Shown here: positions 16,501 through 61,619 of the stretch, one piece after another
Position numbering within the stretch: the stretch's first letter is position 1
How the letters are laid out: the number at the start of each line of letters is the position of its first letter
Source of the DNA: Membranipora membranacea
Lineage: Eukaryota; Bryozoa; Gymnolaemata; Cheilostomatida; Membraniporidae
Direction: 5' to 3'
DNA: 64,000 bases
NCBI GenBank assembly: GCA_914767715.1
Contig: OU612068.1
Span: 19,034,001-19,098,000 of the forward strand
Program-made: the position numbers and the translations under genes
Notes under the pieces: model-generated
What the model saw: the letters and a program-made list of their open reading frames with translations, nothing else
Told to the model about the DNA's origin: nothing
The model's database searches: none

Positions 16501-19500
16501 TTTAAAACTGTTTCACTAAATAATCATCCCATATGATGTTTTTGATAGAAATAATCAAAACTCCAACAGCTATTTGAGATTAATGCCAACAGTAAGATAA
16601 GGTTACTAGTGTATAGTTGGCTGACTTATCACACGAACCCATCAACAAGTAGAAATTTTATTAGTCTTATCAGCTACAAGTGACAAAACAGGGCTTTGTT
16701 GTTGCTAGCCTCATATCAAATTTGGTATGATATGATCCTATCTATGGCACCAATTTTGCTTATAAGATGTCTACTCTGGCGTTTATTTTATCAGTGTAGG
16801 GCTGATTAGACAAGCCCATATTTCCATCAACACAGACACATATGTGAAGACTGGTCCTCCGCGGACCAAGGCGCCCTATAAAGTCAGGGTGGGGTGATCG
16901 TGATAAAATGCCTTCCGTTTACTCTGCACAGCCGCAAGATGTGGCAAGCAAGATTATAAGTGGTAGATACAAGATTAGTTGATGGGCTAGTTTGGGTATC
17001 AACTATCAGTCAGATGTTTTCTAATCTAACACTCCCACAGCCTTGCTAAGCTGCTCTTATCGGATAACATGAGCATAAGTATCCCTGAAACCACTTAGAC
17101 CTTATTCATTGTGTTCGCAGAAAGAGTACAACTGCTGTGTTTCTGTGACACTCTTTGGAATGTAATCTGGCTGTTCCAGGAGCATGCATCAAAATAATCG
17201 TGCTTGAAACGATAGCAATATTAATTATAGAATTATCATGAGGGGAAAAGATTACTATCATTCTCGTCAGTAAGATAACTGTAACATGAGTTTAGAATTT
17301 TTATGGTTACCTAGATGCTGCATTATGAGACTTACCGAAACAATTTGCGGGTTGTTCTTGATCAGTGCTCTATCGTCAGGAGGCTCAATTCTCTGCGCTC
17401 TCAGAGGATCCAGTCCTGCACCTTTACTGATCGGTTTAGCTGATAGTATAGTGTAGCCATCTTAAAATACACAGAGATTTATCAATCATTTTGAATTGAC
17501 AGCTTAAAATTCATTAAACGCTACACATAGCTATAGCAAGTGGTAGTGGAAATTCCAGATCTGATATTCAAAGGAAAGGTAGCATTGGCCCAATGGCAAC
17601 GCTTCAATCAATCAGACCAGGTGTCAACATTCTATCACTTACTCCGTGATTTCATTATCACAGATTGAGGTAGCAAGATGTTGACAGCAAAATGGAAAGT
17701 TATCTCAAGGATGTGTTGAGACGAAGATAAAGCATGAGCGTGATTAACAGTTCCGATTACTCATAAAACAGGCCATCTTCTCATCAATTGATTATTTAAA
17801 CTTCAAATTCAAGATAAGAAACAGAGGATATGAGATTTTACCGGCGTCGGCGCGTCTTTCAACTTTGAGTGGCGCATCATCCGGCACTCCTAGCTTGGCT
17901 TCCAGACTCATTTCGCTGGCTGGAGGAGTTGGTGAGACATTCTGTCTCTCTACAGGACTGGGAGGTTCATCCTTAATGCTCACATCAGGGTCAGCGCCTT
18001 GAGTACTGTAATGCGCTGCTGGATTAGCTGATGGAATGGGTGAGGAGCTCTCACCATCATCAGACTTAGAGTCATCCTCGGGAGATCCTTGCTCATGAAT
18101 TTCTCTTTCTATCTCCTTTGCCCTTGAGGTCATTTTGGATTTATCCTCATCGTCTGCAAGATAATGATAACTGATTTTCAGAATTTCTTACTTCATCTTG
18201 AACCAATTATGATATAGATAGCCAAGATGAAGCATGCCAACATTGTTGATCATGTCAATTCATGCACTCACAATTAACCTGGGACTGACTGGAGAAAGAT
18301 CAAACAGATAGAGTTCCCATCCCGCTGGTACAATAGCTAACATTACATAAAATCACGAGAGATGGCCCACTAGATTATGCTTCTTTAGCTTTGCATGTGA
18401 ACTTCATTGATCTCATTGCTTCCTTTATGTTATATCTGGTTTGAAATCAGCGCTGCACATTGTTATCTGTCAGCCCATCTGAAAACATGTAAGGCTTGCA
18501 TATACAGAAAAAATCAGATCTTTATCAGATACCAGTTTGAGAGATTAATAATCCCTCACAAGCTTTTATAACCAGTGCCTATGTTGCTCAAAATCTTACT
18601 GCGCTGTCTGTTTGTCATATAGTAGCTCCACAAACAGGAGGGTGAAACACTAGGATTCCCAAAACAGTTTGTTAGAACTTTTGACATCAAAAACCAATAA
18701 TATTTCCAAACAAATACAAGATGACCATAGTAGCAACGGGACAATGAAATCCCATATAATATCACAGAGTAAGGATATATATCCTTACTCTGTGATAATA
18801 TGATATGAGACAGGTAATTTTTGTACCCTTTCGAACACAGTAAAATACAATACATCAACCTAACCAGTGTTGAATTTGAAAGAGAGAAAATTGAAGAAAT
18901 CCCTAGAGCTGCTCTTGGCAATAAATAGTTTTTTCAAATTGGTCCTATGAAACTGAATCTTGGCTGCACCATGGAACTATAGATGAATTTTAAATCTTTC
19001 CATGTTAATTTTAAGATAACATGTCTCTGAGTTTTTATCAGAAGGACTTAAAGGACTCATATATCCTGATCATAATCAAGGAGACTGTGGTTTATATCAA
19101 AAAGGCGTCTGAAACATCAATGAAACCTCAGTAAAGTGGTTCCTCTTTTTAGGTAACAAGATCCTTCAGATTATCAGCAGAGATAATAGCTCAGCAATTT
19201 GTCCATAACAAGCTTTTATAATTTATTTTTATAAAAACAGCAATTTTCTTTATCAATATGCAATCTGATATTTCTGTGAACCCATGAAAAGAAATATGAT
19301 GGTTAATAGGTTCAAGATAAGCACTGACATTCATTCTTTTTGTGATAAATATCAAGTCATATTTAGATTTAGGAAGGTTCTTATAGGAGCACTTAATCTA
19401 TTTCTCTCTGATGTAGATGCAGTACCACGGCTATCCAATTCACTTCTTAAACCTCAGCCGTTCAGTGACTTTTATCTTCATATGAAATCTACCACCATAC

Positions 19501-19960: not shown

Positions 19961-20452
19961 GTCTTTAGTTTATTCTTGCAATATTTGTCCTCACAGTTCC
20001 ATTTAATAACCTCTTATCATAGGTAAGTTCATCAGAAAAATCTCTGCAATGGAAACAATGATATAAATCATTTCCCACCGTCGCACGCACAGTGCACGAA
20101 AAGTAGAGCAGAAGTCATCATGGGGATCAGCAGCTGGTATTGGTGGATGGGTGATTTGGGCAACGGCGGTTTCTTGGACCGAAAGCGGTAATAGGCTATC
20201 CATCAAGATCACACGTACTCTGCTGAGAATTGTTGAGTTTATGACTCACAAACAATGTCAAAACAGTGTTCTGACTATAACTTAAAGCTTGACATCTGTT
20301 ACTGAGGAAGGCAATGTTTCCAAAATACAAGCAACTCCTTGATACAAGCACATTGGTAATAGTACACTTGAAAGAAATCAATGCTATTAGTTTGGTGTAA
20401 TCTGAAGGTAAAATGATAGATCAGTGTATGTATGTGTGCTATTAGCAATGAA

Positions 20453-20552
20453 CTAAACCTCAGGTTTAGTTCGACGCAAGCAAGCAAGGTTATATTTGAC
20501 GCAAGCAGCAAAATAGCAATGAACTAAAGGAGGTTTAGTTCATTGCTATTAG
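20453..20552. repeat. Hairpin cluster built from AATGAACTAAACC units
   Basis: AACTAAACCTCAGGTTTAGTT (an imperfect-centre palindrome) near 20453 is followed by GACGCAAGCAAGC / GACGCAAGCAGC repeats. At 20514-20552 there is a perfect stem, AATAGCAATGAACTAAA, 5-nt loop, then its complement. The shared GCAATGAACTAAA unit suggests duplication with partial inversion. Confidence 0.65.
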
Positions 20553-33400: not shown

Positions 33401-36400
33401 TGATTGCCTCCACTTGAAAAACACCCCTTTATAGCAGGCTTTCCTCAAGGAGGCCAGTGGCTACAGTGAGCTAACATGCAGAGTTGGCTTTGCAACATAG
33501 CTTTTGTTTGATCAATAAAGTTGTAGCTAAGTTTTGTGGATCCTGGATAGTGAAGAATAAGATAACGTACTGTGCTAAGCTAGGCAAGTTTCACATCCAA
33601 TTCCAAGATGGAATGAAGTGAAACAAGGCACAGCGGTGACACACAACACAATGTTGATGGAGGTACCGTCTGTTGCAGCAATGAATGAGGGAGTTCATTG
33701 GTTGAAGTCATGTGGTTTCTTACACGAAAATATTAGGGTTGAAACGGATCATGTGAGTCTGCATTTTTAGGGATGTGGCAGGCTGTTTGAAAACAAACTG
33801 AACTTGTAAGATGTGAAACTGCTCAACTGTAAAAGAGTGTACTAGTATAGAAGGTAGCCACTACTACTTAAGGGTCAATTCAGATTGGATTAAGTGATAA
33901 ACACCTTGGCTCTATACATAGAAAGAGGTGTCAATACCCTGACCACCATGCTAAAGGTTCACCTGGTTTGTCATTGGGCAATGGCATTGGCTGCAGCGTC
34001 CATATTTGACTAGCCATTATATTTTGCATGCAATAATATCACAGAGTAAGGATATATCCTTACTCTGTGATAATATTATCATGCTTCAGGATTTGATGAT
34101 AGCGTAGCTCACAGCTTACGTGTACATGGTATTGGTATAAGTGTACGGTTACTGTCATATGAGAATGTTTTAGACTCGGTCAAGTGGTTAACATTGTTAT
34201 CAGTTGATTCAGCAAACATTTATGGGATCTGATGATCGTATAAGTCATGTGACAAAAACTACACTCCTATGCTCTCATAGGATCATTGCTGTACTAGGCC
34301 TACATATTGGCATCAGGATCATTCTTTTACAGACTTGCCAAGTATTAGCAACACTTCAGCTAAATCACAAAGGAGAACGTTGAGAGCTAGAAACAACAAA
34401 GCTGATCAATATGAAACTGCTTTAGTAAAACCTGATAAAGACGGCAGTCTCAAACAATCTGAGAGCACAGCAACACAGCATTTGGAAAGCAAACAAGTAA
34501 GTTAATTCACTATTGTCAGAGCATACAATTGATTGTATGGGTAACAACAATCAAATCAGCATTCATCCACAGCTGCAAACAAAGGGTTTTTCAGCAGCGA
34601 TCAAATAAGAATCCGATTACATTAATGGAAAAATGCACCAAGACAAAGAGCGATGTATAAGCCTAAGCCTAAAGCACTGTTTATTCAGCACTGTTTATTC
34701 AGTTTAATGCGAGGTATGTTCAATGTTCACTGGACCATTTTTTTACTTGATCCGAGGGAACGACCACATCATTGTGTAAATGTGAGATTATGAATGCTAA
34801 AATAATACTGGTCTGTGGTAATTAAATTCATTTGGTGCGTAAAGCTAGAATTGGACACATGGTGAGAAAGGTAAGTGGGTGTGTGTATTTAATAAACCAT
34901 TGACAAAATTATCTATTGAATAAACATTGTGGTGGGAAACTGGTAGGTTATTATTCTCGCTTGTGGCTGTTCCTCGGCAAATCTTTCTGGTGGGGAATAT
35001 TCATATTGTTTTCACAAGTTTATTAACCATTGGATTAGTTGATTTTAAGTCTCATTCATTTCCTCTTGTAGCATAATCAAAGCAATATGCAGTCACTTGT
35101 TGGAAAGAATGTCAGCTGGAGTGGCAGCCAGTTCAAGGTACCGCATGGTAAATCCAAAAGTCTTGTACCAGTGCCTGTTGCACTCAAATGTCCTGGCTGT
35201 AAATATCAAACGGAATGGCGACATGACTATGCAATGCACTTGTCGAAATGTGACCAAGCTCGATCGATCATACAACCTCAGACACCTGGGCAGTATTTGG
35301 CTCAATTTCTGAAAATTCCTACCAACCAAGCTAACATGGTGGTAGCTCAGCAGTTCACTTCACCAACTCGTACTAACACTGCGTATTCTGATAAACGGTT
35401 CAAACAAAATGCAAACCTTCCTCTGCGTCACATCCTGCATAAACAGAAAGACCTGTTACCGCCACCACCATCCTACTCCGAACATGTTTCTACTGTGAGG
35501 CACACTATGCCACTCCCCCCTAGATTGCAGCAGAATCCACAAATTCCACTGCGTTCCAATCCTCAGACAGGTGTGCAACATCAGCAGCCAAAATATTTAG
35601 TGCCATCAGAAGTACCAGTAGATCTGTCTATATCACCTGTTGAGAAAAAGAAACCTGATCAGACCGTGAAGGCTGGTGCTATAAAGAGAAAAGCAAAGGA
35701 ACCCTGCTCTATGCCAACCAAAGTTCGAGCACCTCTCGTCACACTGCCACCACCTACTGCGCCAATATTTGCCTGTACCCATTGTTCCTTCCGTACTGAC
35801 ATGCAAGAGAAAATGGAAGTACATATTCGTAAACATGAATTTGTACCGCCGCCAAAGCCACATGTTCCTTCACAGGGGAATATTGTCCCAGTTGCCATGC
35901 CTATAATTCCTGTTCCAGTACCACGAACATTCACTTGCAATCATTGTACATTTAGGACATCCTCAGAGCTCTGCATGGTTCGTCACCTTTTATCAAAACA
36001 CAGGACCCAGCTTCTACCAAGAAGTAAAATGACTAATAACAATAACTGTAAAATATTCTCCTGTTCTTTCTGCAATTACTTGACAACTGAAGCAAAGATG
36101 GTAGATCACATGCTACATCATTACAAAAATCACCCGCCATGTGGAAGTTGTTCGTCGTGTCAGAACTGGCAACACCCATTCCACAATTCAAAACCTAAGA
36201 ATGTTCAGGTAATTCAAAAACCACCCAAAGACCCATCTCCTAAGAAGACTGAATCAATCCCTACTTCTTTGGCCAAAACTCAGCAATCAAACAGCCTGAT
36301 ATTGTGTACTTTCTGTGGGAAGCAATTTCCTGTGCAGGGACTCTTACAGGCTCATATCTTAGCAGAGCACATGAATGTGGGGCCAATCATTGCTATCAGA

Positions 36401-39842: not shown

Positions 39843-39871
39843 TTAATGAGATCCACAGTGGATCTCATTAA
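39843..39871. repeat. 29-bp palindrome
   Basis: TTAATGAGATCCAC, one A, then its perfect complement. This is the same architecture as the palindrome at 26489 but unrelated in sequence. No clear flanking duplication. Confidence 0.6.
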
Positions 39872-51040: not shown

Positions 51041-52917
51041 GAAAAACGCATTCTTTTAATACTCATGAAAATTATAGAGATTGCAAAATTCAACCCAATA
51101 CAATAATATGGCTCCAGATTGCCACAAACCCAATCAAATTTATGCAACTTTTATGCAAATCTGAGTTAAACTTGATTCAAGACAATGCAATTTCATTTTT
51201 TTGCGGTAGGGATTCAATAGAACCTATCAATATTCACTTTATTCCTAAGCAACCCTTTTAACCTATATCACTTTATTACAATTGATTATGGAACAATGAG
51301 AGGCTCTATCCATCTCCCAGATATGATCATAATAGCAATGACAGTTTGAACACAATAGGCAACACGGTCAAGGAGTGATTCTCATTTTATTTGAGTTCAG
51401 CAACCAAAAAGCATTAAAAATAAAAAAACAATCACATGGCGCTGATTATTAAGAGGTATCCCCCAACCTTTTAAGTCGTCTCTTTGATCGGCAAAACAAT
51501 GCTGCGATAAAATCCATCTGGATAACTGTTTGGCAACCGATGGCTGCCAAAAAGGGATCTGGTTGGCCACAATAACACATTTCATAGGGCAGACAGGTCT
51601 GTAGCAGTGGCGGATTTGTTTTAGACACTCATCATTAGGGCGAATATCCCTTCCCGATGGGTTTACTGACAATATAACTGCACTAAACCCATTTATTCAG
51701 CCACCGGCGCATGCTAAATATCCCTCCGGAAGGGTTGTTGTTATATTTGAGTTAGATGCCAAAAACCCATCCGGATAAACAAAACAAGAATTTAACAATT
51801 GAGTGGTAATGAGTGGTAAAGCGATTGAGTTATAAAACAATTGAGTTGAGACAATCGAGACAATCAAGACAGTCGAGACACTTGAGTAAAACAATTGACT
51901 GAGTGGTAAAACAATTGAGTGATAATGCGTCAGACGTCGGTTTGGTATGGAGGGTTTTTTAGCTATCGACCATCCACTTACAATATCGTCCATGTTCAGA
52001 CAGGAAGAAGTCATCTCCTGGGTTGCTATATACCATTGGGTGGGTAAAGTTTGGATTGGGCTTCAAATCAGGTGACAACCTGGACCAGCAGGCTTTTCGT
52101 TGCTTTTCTGAAGATGTGGTAAGACCCCCCAGAGCTAGCTGGACGCATATATATAAAACAAATGTAAATTATGGATGTGAATGTACCTTTACCTTGCTCA
52201 CCAATTTGAGGGGATTTTCTGGCGATTCAATTTGAGGGTCCGAGGGATCATAGGGGCTTTGACAGGGTCTATGACGATGGACAATGTCATTGTTTGTTGA
52301 CAGGGACTACAGATGACAGTTTTATTGCTAGCTATGAGGTCATTTAGTGAAATGTTTTGCGTCATGAATACACGTATGGCTTTCTCACACAATAGCGTGG
52401 TGCGTCATAAGCGACTACCCGCGTCATAAGCAACTAAATTCTTATAATTTAATGAGAATACATTGCAGATTGAGGGTCTCACCACAAGAACATAAATGTC
52501 ACAATTGACTCCACTATGACCTCATAGCTAGCAATAATGTCATCCAATATGAAGCAAAAATTTGACTGTCACCGTACAGGTTGGTATCGTTACGACTTGG
52601 TGCCAAATCAAATGCTGCTGAGCGTCATCAAATACCCTGATGGCGTTTAATGTAAGAATGCCAGCACACAAAACCACAAGTCAAGGTCATGTATAGTGAC
52701 AGTCAAATTTTTGCTTCATATTGTCAATGTTATCTCACTTATTGCATTTCAATCAATCACATACATTCTTTTTATCAATCCAATGCCACACCTGCTTGCC
52801 ACAGATTTGATGGTAAAATGCTCTAAAGACAGCGTTTAGTCTCAACTCAAGATTATCTAGGGACAGACAGGATGGGAAACATTAGAGGGGTTGCGAGGTT
52901 TGTAGAAACCTAGATTG

Positions 52918-53060
52918 CGACGTTTTGGGTTTGCGGCGTTTGTGAGTGTGTGGCGTTTGTGAGTGTGTGGCGTTTGCGGCGTTTGCGGGATTGCGACGTT
53001 TTGGGTTTGCAGCATTTGTGGGTGTGCGGCGTTTGTGGGTTTGCAGCGTTTGTAGGTTTA
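52918..53060. repeat. GCGTTTGTGGGTTTGC-type minisatellite inside an inverted arm
   Basis: Tandem degenerate units alternate GGCGTTTG, TGGGTTTGC and TGAGTGTGT. The partner arm near 54530-54620 has the complementary unit but a shorter array, so array length has changed since the arms formed. Confidence 0.75.
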
Positions 53061-54037
53061 CGGACAACATGGAACATAGGGCCCTTGCCGGAGGGTATGG
53101 CCTCGTGGAGCGCGCTTTAGATACTGTAACCCTAAAGCAACATGATTTAGCAGTCCTGTGTTCCTGAAAAGGCCATTAATAATAATTATATTTGCAGAAT
53201 TGATATATTGGAATATTATCATTTAGTACTGGTATATGGACAATCCATCTAGCAGCGGAATGCCAAAACAATTTGGCTAGAGACTATAGATATCTAGAAT
53301 GTCCTAGTCTGTGATCTAAGTGTCAATACATGTTTTCCAAAGCTAGTTAACCCATCATGTACCAGCAAGAAATTGGTACAAGAACAAGCCTCAACAAGTG
53401 ATTACAGAGATAAACTACCTCCAGCAAGCAAGTTTTTATCAAAATCCAATCTGCAATGTATTCTCATTAAATTATAAGAATTTAGTAGCTTATAACTCGG
53501 TAGTCGCTTATGACGCACCACGCTATTGTGTGAGAAAGCCATCGCGTATTCATGACGCAAAACATTTCATGGCTAAAACATCTCATTGGTAATCGGTGTT
53601 GATGTTGATTTTATAGTTAGATAAAAAACTTGCTTGCTGGAGGTAGTTTATCTCTGTAATCACTTGTTGAGGCTTGTTCTTGTACCAATTCCTTGCTGGT
53701 ACATGATGGGTTAACTAGCTTTGGAAAACATTCAACTTGAATGGCGAGAATCGATTCATCACAGTAATATAATAATGATATTCATCACCATTCTGCCACC
53801 TCTCCTTACTTGGCCGTATGCCAACATGCATGACAGATGCTGGTAATAAATTTAATGGTGTCAATATGGAACGGAAACCCACATAGAATTTTAAGTCTCT
53901 CATGGTGGACATGGCAGTCATGAGTCACCTAAGCTGTGTTGGATCTCAAAAAAAGGCTGATGGATCATGTTGTTGTTCATGGTATTTATCGCTCCAGTGG
54001 CTTTTATCTAAGAAATTATTTTGTGTGGTATGATGAT

Positions 54038-54146
54038 TAGTTAAAGAGCTCTAACTCCGGTGGTTCAGTGGCATTACATTATCATATGACATTATCAGAT
54101 GATAATGTAATGCCACTGAACCACCGGAGTTAGAGCTCTTTAACTA
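54038..54146. mobile_element. Perfect hairpin, 46-bp arms, TA-flanked
   Basis: Arms 54040-54085 and 54099-54144 are perfect complements (starting GTTAAAGAGCTCTAACTCCG) with a 13-nt loop. TA directly precedes and follows and could be a TA target duplication as made by Tc1/mariner-type transposases, or simply the last pair of the stem. It lies inside the nested repeat complex and is absent from the partner arm as far as I can see, so it is probably a recent insertion. Confidence 0.7.
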
Positions 54147-55003
54147 TATGATGATAAGCTTCTAAGAAAATGCCAGTTTTGTAGGTGACAACCCATGATG
54201 GCTTCTGTCGCTAGACAGACCTGACCACATACCAGCACAACATCTTTTCAAAACAATAATGTCTATGTATTGACACTTAGATCACAGACTAGGACATTCT
54301 AGATATCTATAGTCTCTAGCCACATTGTTTTGACATCCTGTCGCTAGATGGATTGTCCATATACCAGTACTATATGATAATATTCCAATCTATCTATTTC
54401 GTCAAATATAATTATTTTTAATGGCCTATCCAGGAACACAGGACTGCTAAATCATGTTGCTTTAGGGTTACGGTATCTAAAGCACGCTCCACGAGGCCAT
54501 ACCCTCCGGCAAGGGCCCTATGTTCCATGTTGCAACGCCGCAAACCCAAAACGTCGCAATCCCACAAACGCCACACACCCAAAACGTTGCAATCTAGGTT
54601 TCTACAAACGTCGCAACCCCTCTAATGTTTCCCATCCTGTCTGTCCCTAGATAATCTTAAGTTGAGACTAAACGCTGTCTTTTGAGCATTTTACCATCAA
54701 ATCTGTGGCAAGCAGGTGTGGCATTGGATTGATAAAGAGAATCTATGTGATTGATTGAAATGCAATAAGTGAGATAACATTGACAATATGAAGCAAAAAT
54801 TTGACTGTCACCGTACAGGTTGGTATCGTTACGACTAGGTGCCAAATCAAATGCTGCTGAGCGTCATCAAATACCCTGATGGCGTTTAATGTAAAAATAC
54901 TAGCACACAAAACCACAAGTCAAGGTCATGTCTGATTTATTTGAAAATATAAATCATATCTGTTCTTGAGTGATAGCTTTGATTACGATGAGATGATTAC
55001 GTA

Positions 55004-60978: not shown

Positions 60979-61020
60979 AAAATATCACAGAGTAAGGATA
61001 TCCTTACTCTGTGAAAATAT
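60979..61020. mobile_element. Ultra-short palindromic insertion, copy 3 (28-bp core + 7-bp TSD), with empty-site paralogue
   Basis: The core at 60986-61013 is CACAGAGTAAGG, (AT)2, then the complement arm. AAAATAT flanks it directly on both sides (60979-60985 and 61014-61020). The duplicated block at 61381-61402 has the same flanks, with a single AAAATAT at 61388-61394 followed by AGCTTGGG, exactly the expected unoccupied site. Confidence 0.85.
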
Positions 61021-61619
61021 AGCTTGGGAATTTAGGGGTCCCCAGATGCCAAAGCATTTAATGACCAGCTTGAGCCAATAAAATTTTATATCTGGATATC
61101 CCTGTTGTCATTATTACAAAATAATATTTGATCAATTCGTTGTTAATACGCTTGGGAGTTGAAGGCAATAACCTCAGTTTTTAGCATCAAGTCAAAAATT
61201 ATAGACAGCTGTCAGCAGAGGAAATTCATTGTGCTATTTTTAAATAAAATTCAAGATCTGGCTGCTTTCGTATTTAAAAAAATACAAACACTAATTGACT
61301 TTTAAAAAGGATCCCAAACAGATATAGTCTCGTAGCTGGGTGTTGTTTAAAGTATCCACGTCTATAAGCGTCTGTTTTCATTACTACAAAATATAGCTTG
61401 GGAATTTAGGGGTCCCCAGATGCCAAAGCATTTAATGACCAGTCTGAGCCAATAAAATTTTATATTTGGATATCCCTGTTGTCATTCTTACAAAATATTT
61501 GATCATTTCATTGTTAATACACTTGGAATTTGAAAGCAATAACCTCAGTTTTTAGCATCAAGTCAAAAATTATGGACAGCTGTCTGCTGGAATATTTTGT
61601 CATTTTTTTGTATTAAATA

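What the first reader, a model, noticed from the sequence alone, without database searches (positions are those of the whole stretch)
60979..61020. A 28-32-bp palindromic 'nano-element' that inserts with a 7-bp target duplication
Seen directly: three loci (18756, 34033, 60979) carry the same perfect palindrome CACAGAGTAAGG-(AT)n-complement with n = 4, 3 and 2. Each sits between perfect 7-bp direct repeats (ATAATAT, ATAATAT, AAAATAT), and the third has an empty-site paralogue in a neighbouring duplicated block. Arms are identical across loci and only the AT spacer varies, so copies are recent or conserved. An insertion of under 35 bp consisting only of two abutting inverted repeats is far smaller than usual MITEs. 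A 7-bp duplication does not fit the commonest superfamilies (hAT 8, Mutator 9, PIF 3, mariner 2), although Dada-type elements make 6-7 bp. It may be a pair of terminal repeats left after complete loss of the interior, still mobilised in trans, or a new element class.
Basis: partly seen in the sequence, partly recalled or inferred. Interest (0 to 1): 0.88.

Follow-up and report, generated by a model that had tools for sequence, protein, structure and literature searches.

The report
Scars left by departed P transposons
The tiny 28-32-letter mirror-image sequences are most likely not a new jumping element but the repair scars that P-type transposons leave behind when they cut themselves out, and this animal genome carries hundreds of them.

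Summary
In detail: three perfect palindromes, CACAGAGTAAGG-(AT)n-CCTTACTCTGTG, each between perfect 7-bp repeats, one with an empty-site paralogue. The window's 339-Mb genome has 681 exact copies, reversed-pattern control 0. Of 54 examined, 37 have a perfect 7-bp duplication; shuffled flanks give 1.5. The target is ATAWTAT.

The 'mobile nano-element' reading fits poorly. The best explanation is excision scars of a P-superfamily transposon. P transposase leaves 17-nt 3' tails at the donor site. Tails of CACAGAGTAAGGATATA pair through their terminal TATA and give exactly the commonest copy, a 30-mer. Three predictions were met: asymmetric microhomology joins (37 places, control 0); long elements starting with that 17-mer (638 places, some of them scars, control 0); and similar scars of a second family whose P transposase is identified (101, control 0). 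The 33-bp terminal repeat occurs at 71 places; one convergent pair, 5,915 bp apart, encloses a P transposase.

Ten further scar-like palindromes, of at least five arm types, lie in the sequence held; one type gives 586 matches genome-wide.

Not shown: the 17-nt cut itself, or mobility of any copy.

The parts
18756..18762 (.). left 7-bp target duplication ATAATAT
   Evidence: perfect direct repeat of 18795-18801
18763..18794 (.). 32-bp excision scar, spacer (AT)4; equals a join of two 17-nt tails through 2-bp TA
18795..18801 (.). right 7-bp target duplication ATAATAT
34033..34039 (.). left 7-bp target duplication ATAATAT
34040..34069 (.). 30-bp excision scar, spacer (AT)3; the commonest form, equals a join through the tail-terminal TATA
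34070..34076 (.). right 7-bp target duplication ATAATAT
60979..60985 (.). left 7-bp target duplication AAAATAT
60986..61013 (.). 28-bp excision scar, spacer (AT)2; equals a join through ATAT after 1 nt is trimmed from each tail
61014..61020 (.). right 7-bp target duplication AAAATAT
61349..61444 (+). paralogue of the flanks of 60986-61013 without palindrome or duplication (empty site; single AAAATAT at 61388-61394)
20439..20552 (.). probable scar of a second terminal-repeat family: 7-bp duplication CTATTAG on both sides of CAATGAACTAAA...TTTAGTTCATTG (20446-20545), with a filler that repeats pieces of the arms
   Evidence: 586 short palindromic matches with the same arms in the genome

Best explanation
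Each palindrome is a donor-site scar of a P-superfamily DNA transposon. The transposon inserted at an ATAWTAT-like site and duplicated 7 bp. On leaving, its transposase cut the transferred strand at the element border and the other strand 17 nt inside each terminal repeat. Both chromosome ends then carried the same 17-nt 3' tail, CACAGAGTAAGGATATA. Microhomology end joining, probably polymerase-theta type, paired the tails through self-complementary TATA, TA or ATAT, sometimes after trimming or with templated filler. The result is duplication - arm - (AT)n - reversed arm - duplication. Shown: the anatomy, the copy number, the predicted asymmetric joins, parent elements with the predicted ends, a P transposase between two of those ends, and comparable palindromes of a second P family. 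Inferred: the 17-nt cut in this species, the repair enzyme, and that scars cannot move.
For: 1) 681 copies, control 0; 37 of 54 with perfect 7-bp repeats. 2) Junctions: 37 of 54 equal a join of two CACAGAGTAAGGATATA tails without inserted bases (21 at 30 bp, 6 at 28, 4 at 32, 3 at 26, 1 blunt at 34, 2 others); 17 of 54 carry filler or substitutions. Of the 108 ends of these copies, 61 match the parents' 33-bp repeat for exactly 17 nt, 46 for 12-16, and 1 for 18. 3) Asymmetric joins: 37 places, control 0; 17 are exactly CACAGAGTAAGGATACTCTGTG. 15 of the 37 have AT on both flanks, against 30 of 54 symmetric copies and about 0.3 of 37 by chance (AT is 9.6% of dinucleotides). One held example has a perfect duplication (L042:2781-2803). 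4) The 17-mer followed by a non-T base: 638 places, control 0; 11 convergent pairs of 526-1683 bp among the first 100 listed, eight of them 693-726 bp. 5) 33-bp repeat at 71 places, control 0, 6 convergent pairs. The 5,915-bp pair C3:29036945-29042859 encloses a PF21787 match (E 4.8e-34); 0.005 such enclosures expected by chance. Its frames carry HTH, RNase H N, GTP-binding and RNase H C domains of P transposase. 6) Second P family, L074: all five P-transposase domains, ends CATAGACCTACT.. with an 8-bp duplication, and 101 palindromic matches, control 0. 7) Drosophila P excision joins have this architecture (PMC2895639, section 7); 17-nt stagger (PMC7776569, passages); Galileo 7-bp duplication GTATTAC (PMC4168063, passages).
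Against: Only one of the 134 P-transposase matches found (a lower bound) lies between two such 33-bp ends, and in that copy the two frames are separated by one stop codon, so a working transposase for this family is not shown. The duplication of the 5.9-kb copy was not read; 7 bp for long elements rests on one old 256-bp relative (L038:1662-1917, ATTATAA/ATTTTAA, 1 mismatch) and on two long elements separated by exactly 7 bp. 17 of 54 junctions need filler or substitution, and one end keeps 18 nt (L025:5009). 8 of 54 copies lack a 7-bp repeat even with 2 mismatches. In the L074 family 31 of the 50 listed palindromes exceed 34 bp, so they need filler or a longer stagger, and their flanks and letters were not read. 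Five-copy tandem and nested scars would also fit a mobile unit.
Confidence: 0.94

Rival explanations
1. A true mobile nano-MITE: the 26-36-bp palindrome itself is cut and pasted in trans by a P-type transposase that recognises the outer 12 bp.
For: Hundreds of copies with target duplications; an empty-site paralogue; copies inside copies with a 7-bp duplication, e.g. C5:17751982-17752050, and tandem copies.
Against: Spacers vary as joins of 17-nt tails predict. Asymmetric joins exist that no palindromic unit would template. Parent elements with longer identical ends exist. A second P family with identified transposase shows the same kind of palindrome. The scar lacks the internal transposase-binding sites that Drosophila P needs (recalled, not tested), and 17-nt staggers from both ends would overlap in 28-32 bp (inference). 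Nesting is expected anyway, because the scar recreates ATATAT-like targets.
Confidence: 0.04
2. Footprint or MITE of another superfamily with similar duplications (hAT-like with A2/G5 ends, or Dada with 6-7 bp).
Against: The transposase found between two of these 33-bp ends is a P transposase. Of 108 arm ends, 61 stop matching the parent repeat at exactly 17 nt and 1 goes further. No Rfam match in the window, so the three window copies are not in known RNA genes, where Dada inserts (the other 678 copies were not checked). A hAT search of the genome was tried and not answered.
Confidence: 0.01
3. A conserved regulatory palindrome or hairpin RNA locus, not transposition-related.
For: Arms identical over hundreds of copies (the search asked for identical arms).
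Against: Flanks differ between loci and are duplicated, an empty paralogue exists, spacers vary, and no Rfam family matches the window.
Confidence: 0.01

Closest known systems
Drosophila P-element excision junctions (P{wa} in Rad51-deficient flies; PMC2895639 Table 1, section 7 read)
   Same: Target duplication + up to 17 nt of terminal repeat + joint + up to 17 nt reversed + duplication; among joints that keep both tails nearly whole, AT (14 isolates) and TA (5) are commonest; asymmetric joins and templated insertions occur.
   Different: There: one marked element in mutant flies, 8-bp duplication, and 18 isolates joined by a longer homology that removes most of the tails. Here: hundreds of copies in an assembly, from several families; this family duplicates 7 bp, and its tails end in TATA, which makes one product dominate.
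Galileo (P superfamily, Drosophila; PMC4168063, abstract, passages and one section seen)
   Same: Mostly 7-bp duplications; palindromic AT-rich target GTATTAC against ATAWTAT here; long terminal repeats (the L074 family here has imperfect ones of about 400 bp or more).
   Different: The family behind the finding has 33-bp identical ends where tested; Galileo's excision scars are not described in the parts I saw.
P-MITEs of Anopheles gambiae (PMC1562414, passages seen)
   Same: Short non-autonomous elements with P ends, like the ~700-bp elements here (which were located, not read).
   Different: 8-bp duplications there; scars are not described in the passages I saw.

Membership tests
P-superfamily excision scar | short target duplication (7 or 8 bp) on both sides | tested here: met
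   37 of 54 perfect at 7 bp; L033:2001 perfect at 8; 10 other CA..TG palindromes in held sequence: 6 at 7 bp, 4 at 8, none at 5, 6, 9 or 10
P-superfamily excision scar | arms are the first nucleotides, at most 17, of a P terminal repeat | tested here: met
   of 108 ends 61 match the 33-bp repeat for exactly 17 nt, 46 for 12-16, 1 for 18; longer elements start with the same 17-mer
P-superfamily excision scar | junctions with microhomology, trimming and templated filler | tested here: met
   34 of 54 joins use 2-4 bp microhomology; 37 asymmetric joins; filler resembling the arms
P superfamily (parent element) | P transposase domains between the same terminal repeats | tested here: met
   C3:29036945-29042859 encloses PF21787; HTH, GTP-binding and RNase H C domains in L050; THAP part not read in this copy; one of six pairs
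P superfamily (parent element) | 7- or 8-bp duplication of the transposase-bearing copy | not tested
P superfamily (parent element) | 17-nt staggered, GTP-dependent cleavage | not testable with these tools
   inferred from junctions only; stagger in Drosophila from PMC7776569
MITE moved as a unit | constant interior among copies | tested here: not met
   21 different spacers among 52 copies and asymmetric forms
MITE moved as a unit | transposition of the short unit | not testable with these tools
   needs a transposition assay
hAT | 8-bp duplication | tested here: not met
   duplication is 7 bp; 1 of 52 perfect at 8
hAT | hAT transposase with these ends | not tested
   the genome search for PF05699 did not complete; the enzyme found with these ends is P-type
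Dada | 6-7-bp duplication inside multicopy RNA genes | tested here: inconclusive
   no Rfam match anywhere in the window, which holds 3 of 681 copies

The most novel reading that the evidence does not exclude
P-element excision is unusually frequent, or even regular, in this animal's germ line or in a clonal body lineage, and end joining rather than copying-back is the normal outcome. The genome has then stored well over a thousand scars (681 + 586 + 101 matches for three sets of arms alone) as a natural record of microhomology end joining, and some scars may be scars of scars, since each recreates its own target.
Probability: 0.15. Interest if true: 0.85.

Novelty: new member of a known kind. 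Interest (0 to 1): 0.62.

Why it matters
It turns a supposed new transposon class into a readable fossil record. Each scar marks a site where a P-type transposon once sat and left, and its centre records how the break was joined. With hundreds of scars per family, the stagger length, tail sequence and joining rules can be read from an assembly without an excision experiment. Repeat annotation could easily file these as orphan palindromes or tiny MITEs, so the same misreading may occur elsewhere. In four searches of the held library (listings, plus the papers cited) I saw no genome-wide description of P-type scars; most subscription papers, and bioRxiv preprints, are not held.

Tried and rejected
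hAT with 7-bp duplication was my first idea (CACAG ends, nTnnnAn target); dropped when the P ends and transposase were found. Searching public collections for the palindrome gave nothing: viral contigs 0, genome contigs 0. Searching papers for the 12-mer gave 12 unrelated titles, apparently primers. The convergent pair C1:26977485/26978014 turned out to be two separate scars, not a long element. Five solo ends were read: degenerate scar-like copies in two (L078, L080), probable chance matches in others. No CACAGAG ends were seen in the P loci L045-L074; the stretches held do not reach the element ends where those are known (L050, L074). In one search, several of the 638 places are scars whose 18th base is not T (for example C1:8861499, C1:26977497), so 638 is not a count of long elements; the 33-mer count (71) is the clean one. 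The count of 586 includes at least one overlapping double count. Palindromes that do not start CA and end TG were also scanned as a contrast: 2 at 7 bp, and 29 to 63 at 5, 6, 8, 9 and 10 bp each, which on the listing (6 bp and up) come mainly from tandem arrays, AT repeats and off-register copies of the main family, so that contrast is noisy. The third-family count (CAGAGACTATAG) did not complete. The organism was not identified: a 100% protein match has no name, and the only named hit is a distant bryozoan protein. Neither changes the odds.

Full report
OBSERVATION. The three palindromes are real and exact: 18763-18794, 34040-34069 and 60986-61013, with 7-bp direct repeats ATAATAT, ATAATAT and AAAATAT. 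The third has an empty paralogue about 400 bp downstream, and the alignment shows a clean gain of 28 bp plus one 7-bp repeat. The window is C4:19034001-19098000 of a 339,339,785-base genome in 18 contigs; the exact two-armed pattern with a spacer of 1-20 bp occurs 681 times there and the reversed pattern never.

TARGET DUPLICATION. I read the flanks of 54 copies: 49 of the 50 listed, 3 in the window, 2 met by accident in L075. 37 have a perfect 7-bp repeat, 42 at most one mismatch, 46 at most two; 8 have more, one of them a perfect 8-bp repeat (L033:2001). Dealing the right flanks out at random gives 1.45 perfect on average and at most 6 in 1000 trials. The symmetrised target of the 37 perfect copies among the first 52 is A91 T88 A64 W82 T64 A88 T91 (percent), that is ATAWTAT.

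WHAT THE CENTRE SAYS. Spacers differ from copy to copy: 21 kinds in 52 copies. They are not random. P transposase cuts one strand 17 bp inside the terminal repeat (PMC7776569, passages). After P excision in flies the chromosome ends carry 17-nt 3' tails; in Rad51-deficient flies they are joined as duplication - tail - joint - reversed tail - duplication. Among joints that keep both tails nearly whole AT (14 isolates) and TA (5) are commonest; other isolates have templated inserts, and 18 used a longer homology that removes most of the tails (PMC2895639, section 7). If the tail here is CACAGAGTAAGGATATA, its last four bases TATA pair with their copy on the other end. That gives the 30-mer CACAGAGTAAGGATATATCCTTACTCTGTG: 21 of the 54 read copies. 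TA pairing gives 32 bp (4 of 54), blunt joining 34 bp (1), ATAT after trimming 28 bp (6), AT 26 bp (3), two more join without homology, and 17 of 54 have filler or substitutions, some that repeat the arms (ATAATCCTTATCCTTAT). Compared with the parents' 33-bp repeat, 61 of the 108 ends match for exactly 17 nt, 46 for 12 to 16, and only one for 18. In part this follows from the palindrome, but a longer tail would have brought in the C at position 18, and it is almost never there.

PREDICTIONS TESTED. (a) Asymmetric joins at the inner TA of one arm: CACAGAGTAAGGATAN{0,4}CTCTGTG occurs at 37 places, control 0; 17 are exactly the predicted 22-mer. 15 of the 37 are bordered by AT on both sides, compared with 30 of 54 symmetric copies and about 0.3 of 37 expected from the AT frequency of 9.6%. 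One asymmetric copy in held sequence has a perfect 7-bp duplication (L042:2781-2803). (b) Elements that begin with the 17-mer and continue differently: 638 places, control 0; some are scars with filler, but 11 convergent pairs of 526-1683 bp stand out among the first 100 listed, eight of them 693-726 bp, and two neighbouring elements are exactly 7 bp apart. (c) An old 256-bp relative in L038 (1662-1917, duplication ATTATAA/ATTTTAA) gave the longer repeat, and the 33-mer occurs at 71 places, control 0, all listed. Of six convergent pairs one is 5,915 bp long (C3:29036945-29042859) and encloses a P-transposase match (PF21787, E 4.8e-34); 0.005 enclosures are expected by chance. It is the only one of the 134 matches found that is so enclosed. 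Its frames hold the HTH, RNase H N, GTP-binding and RNase H C domains; they are separated by one stop, so this copy is described, not claimed to work. (d) A second P family with all five domains (L074), ends CATAGACCTACT... and an 8-bp duplication GTTAGATC should leave scars too: 101 palindromic matches, control 0. Their lengths are broader (28-44 bp in the 50 listed, 44 being the most the pattern allows; 31 of 50 above 34), as expected for tails without a self-complementary end, though a slightly longer stagger is also possible. Their flanks were not read.

GENERALITY. A scan of the held sequence (348 kb, 83 sources, counted) for other CA...TG palindromes of 18-80 bp between direct repeats gave 6 with 7 bp and 4 with 8 bp and none with 5, 6, 9 or 10 bp (two 11-bp rows are off-register copies of the main family; palindromes with other ends give a noisy contrast dominated by tandem arrays). 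They fall into at least five further arm types. One, CAATGAACTAAA, is also in the window (20439-20552, duplication CTATTAG) and has 586 short palindromic matches in the genome, control 0, most often 26 bp (17 of the 50 listed).

MECHANISM, STEP BY STEP. Shown: scar anatomy, duplications, junction classes, parents with the same ends, P transposase with these ends, like palindromes of a second P family. Inferred: 17-nt cleavage in this species, polymerase-theta-type joining, loss of mobility of the scar. The scar makes a new ATATAT-like target, which explains nested copies (C5:17751982-17752050, inner copy bordered by ATATATC twice) and rows of copies that share one duplication (C1:15232587-15232649; five in a row at C2:39442019-39442186).

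KNOWN OR NEW. P-element scars are known from Drosophila assays; P elements with 7-bp duplications are known (Galileo, PMC4168063, abstract and passages). What is new here, as far as the library searches show, is the scale and the disguise: scars of several P families, hundreds in the larger ones, that look like a family of 30-bp elements. I therefore call it a new member of a known kind.

LIMITS.

Noticed in passing
window 54029-54155: 109-bp near-perfect palindrome (TAGTTAAAGAGCTC...) between perfect 9-bp repeats TATGATGAT: looks like a fold-back MITE of another superfamily with a 9-bp duplication.
   Followed up: partly
window 39843-39871: 29-bp hairpin TTAATGAGATCCAC-A-GTGGATCTCATTAA, i.e. 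a 21-bp palindrome between TTAA sites; might be a trace of a TTAA-type transposon.
   Followed up: no
window about 52330-54930: Several long inverted-repeat matches (for example 52705/54802 and 53079/54518), plus a 148-bp direct duplication at 52545 and 54784.
   Followed up: no
L081, L074, L082 (C2:140200-146600): P transposon with imperfect terminal inverted repeats of about 400 bp or more and an 8-bp duplication, reminiscent of Galileo; L073 and L074 are 99.9% identical over the stretch held, so recently active.
   Followed up: partly
G000 C2:39442019-39442186 and C3:18615519-18616069: Rows of scars: five head-to-tail copies with a 35-bp period sharing ACAGTAT, and a complex cluster of nested and repeated scars; an excision scar may be seeding a minisatellite.
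   Followed up: no
L002:2340-2834: Tandem array of an 18-bp unit CACAGTAACTCAGCCTGA.
   Followed up: no
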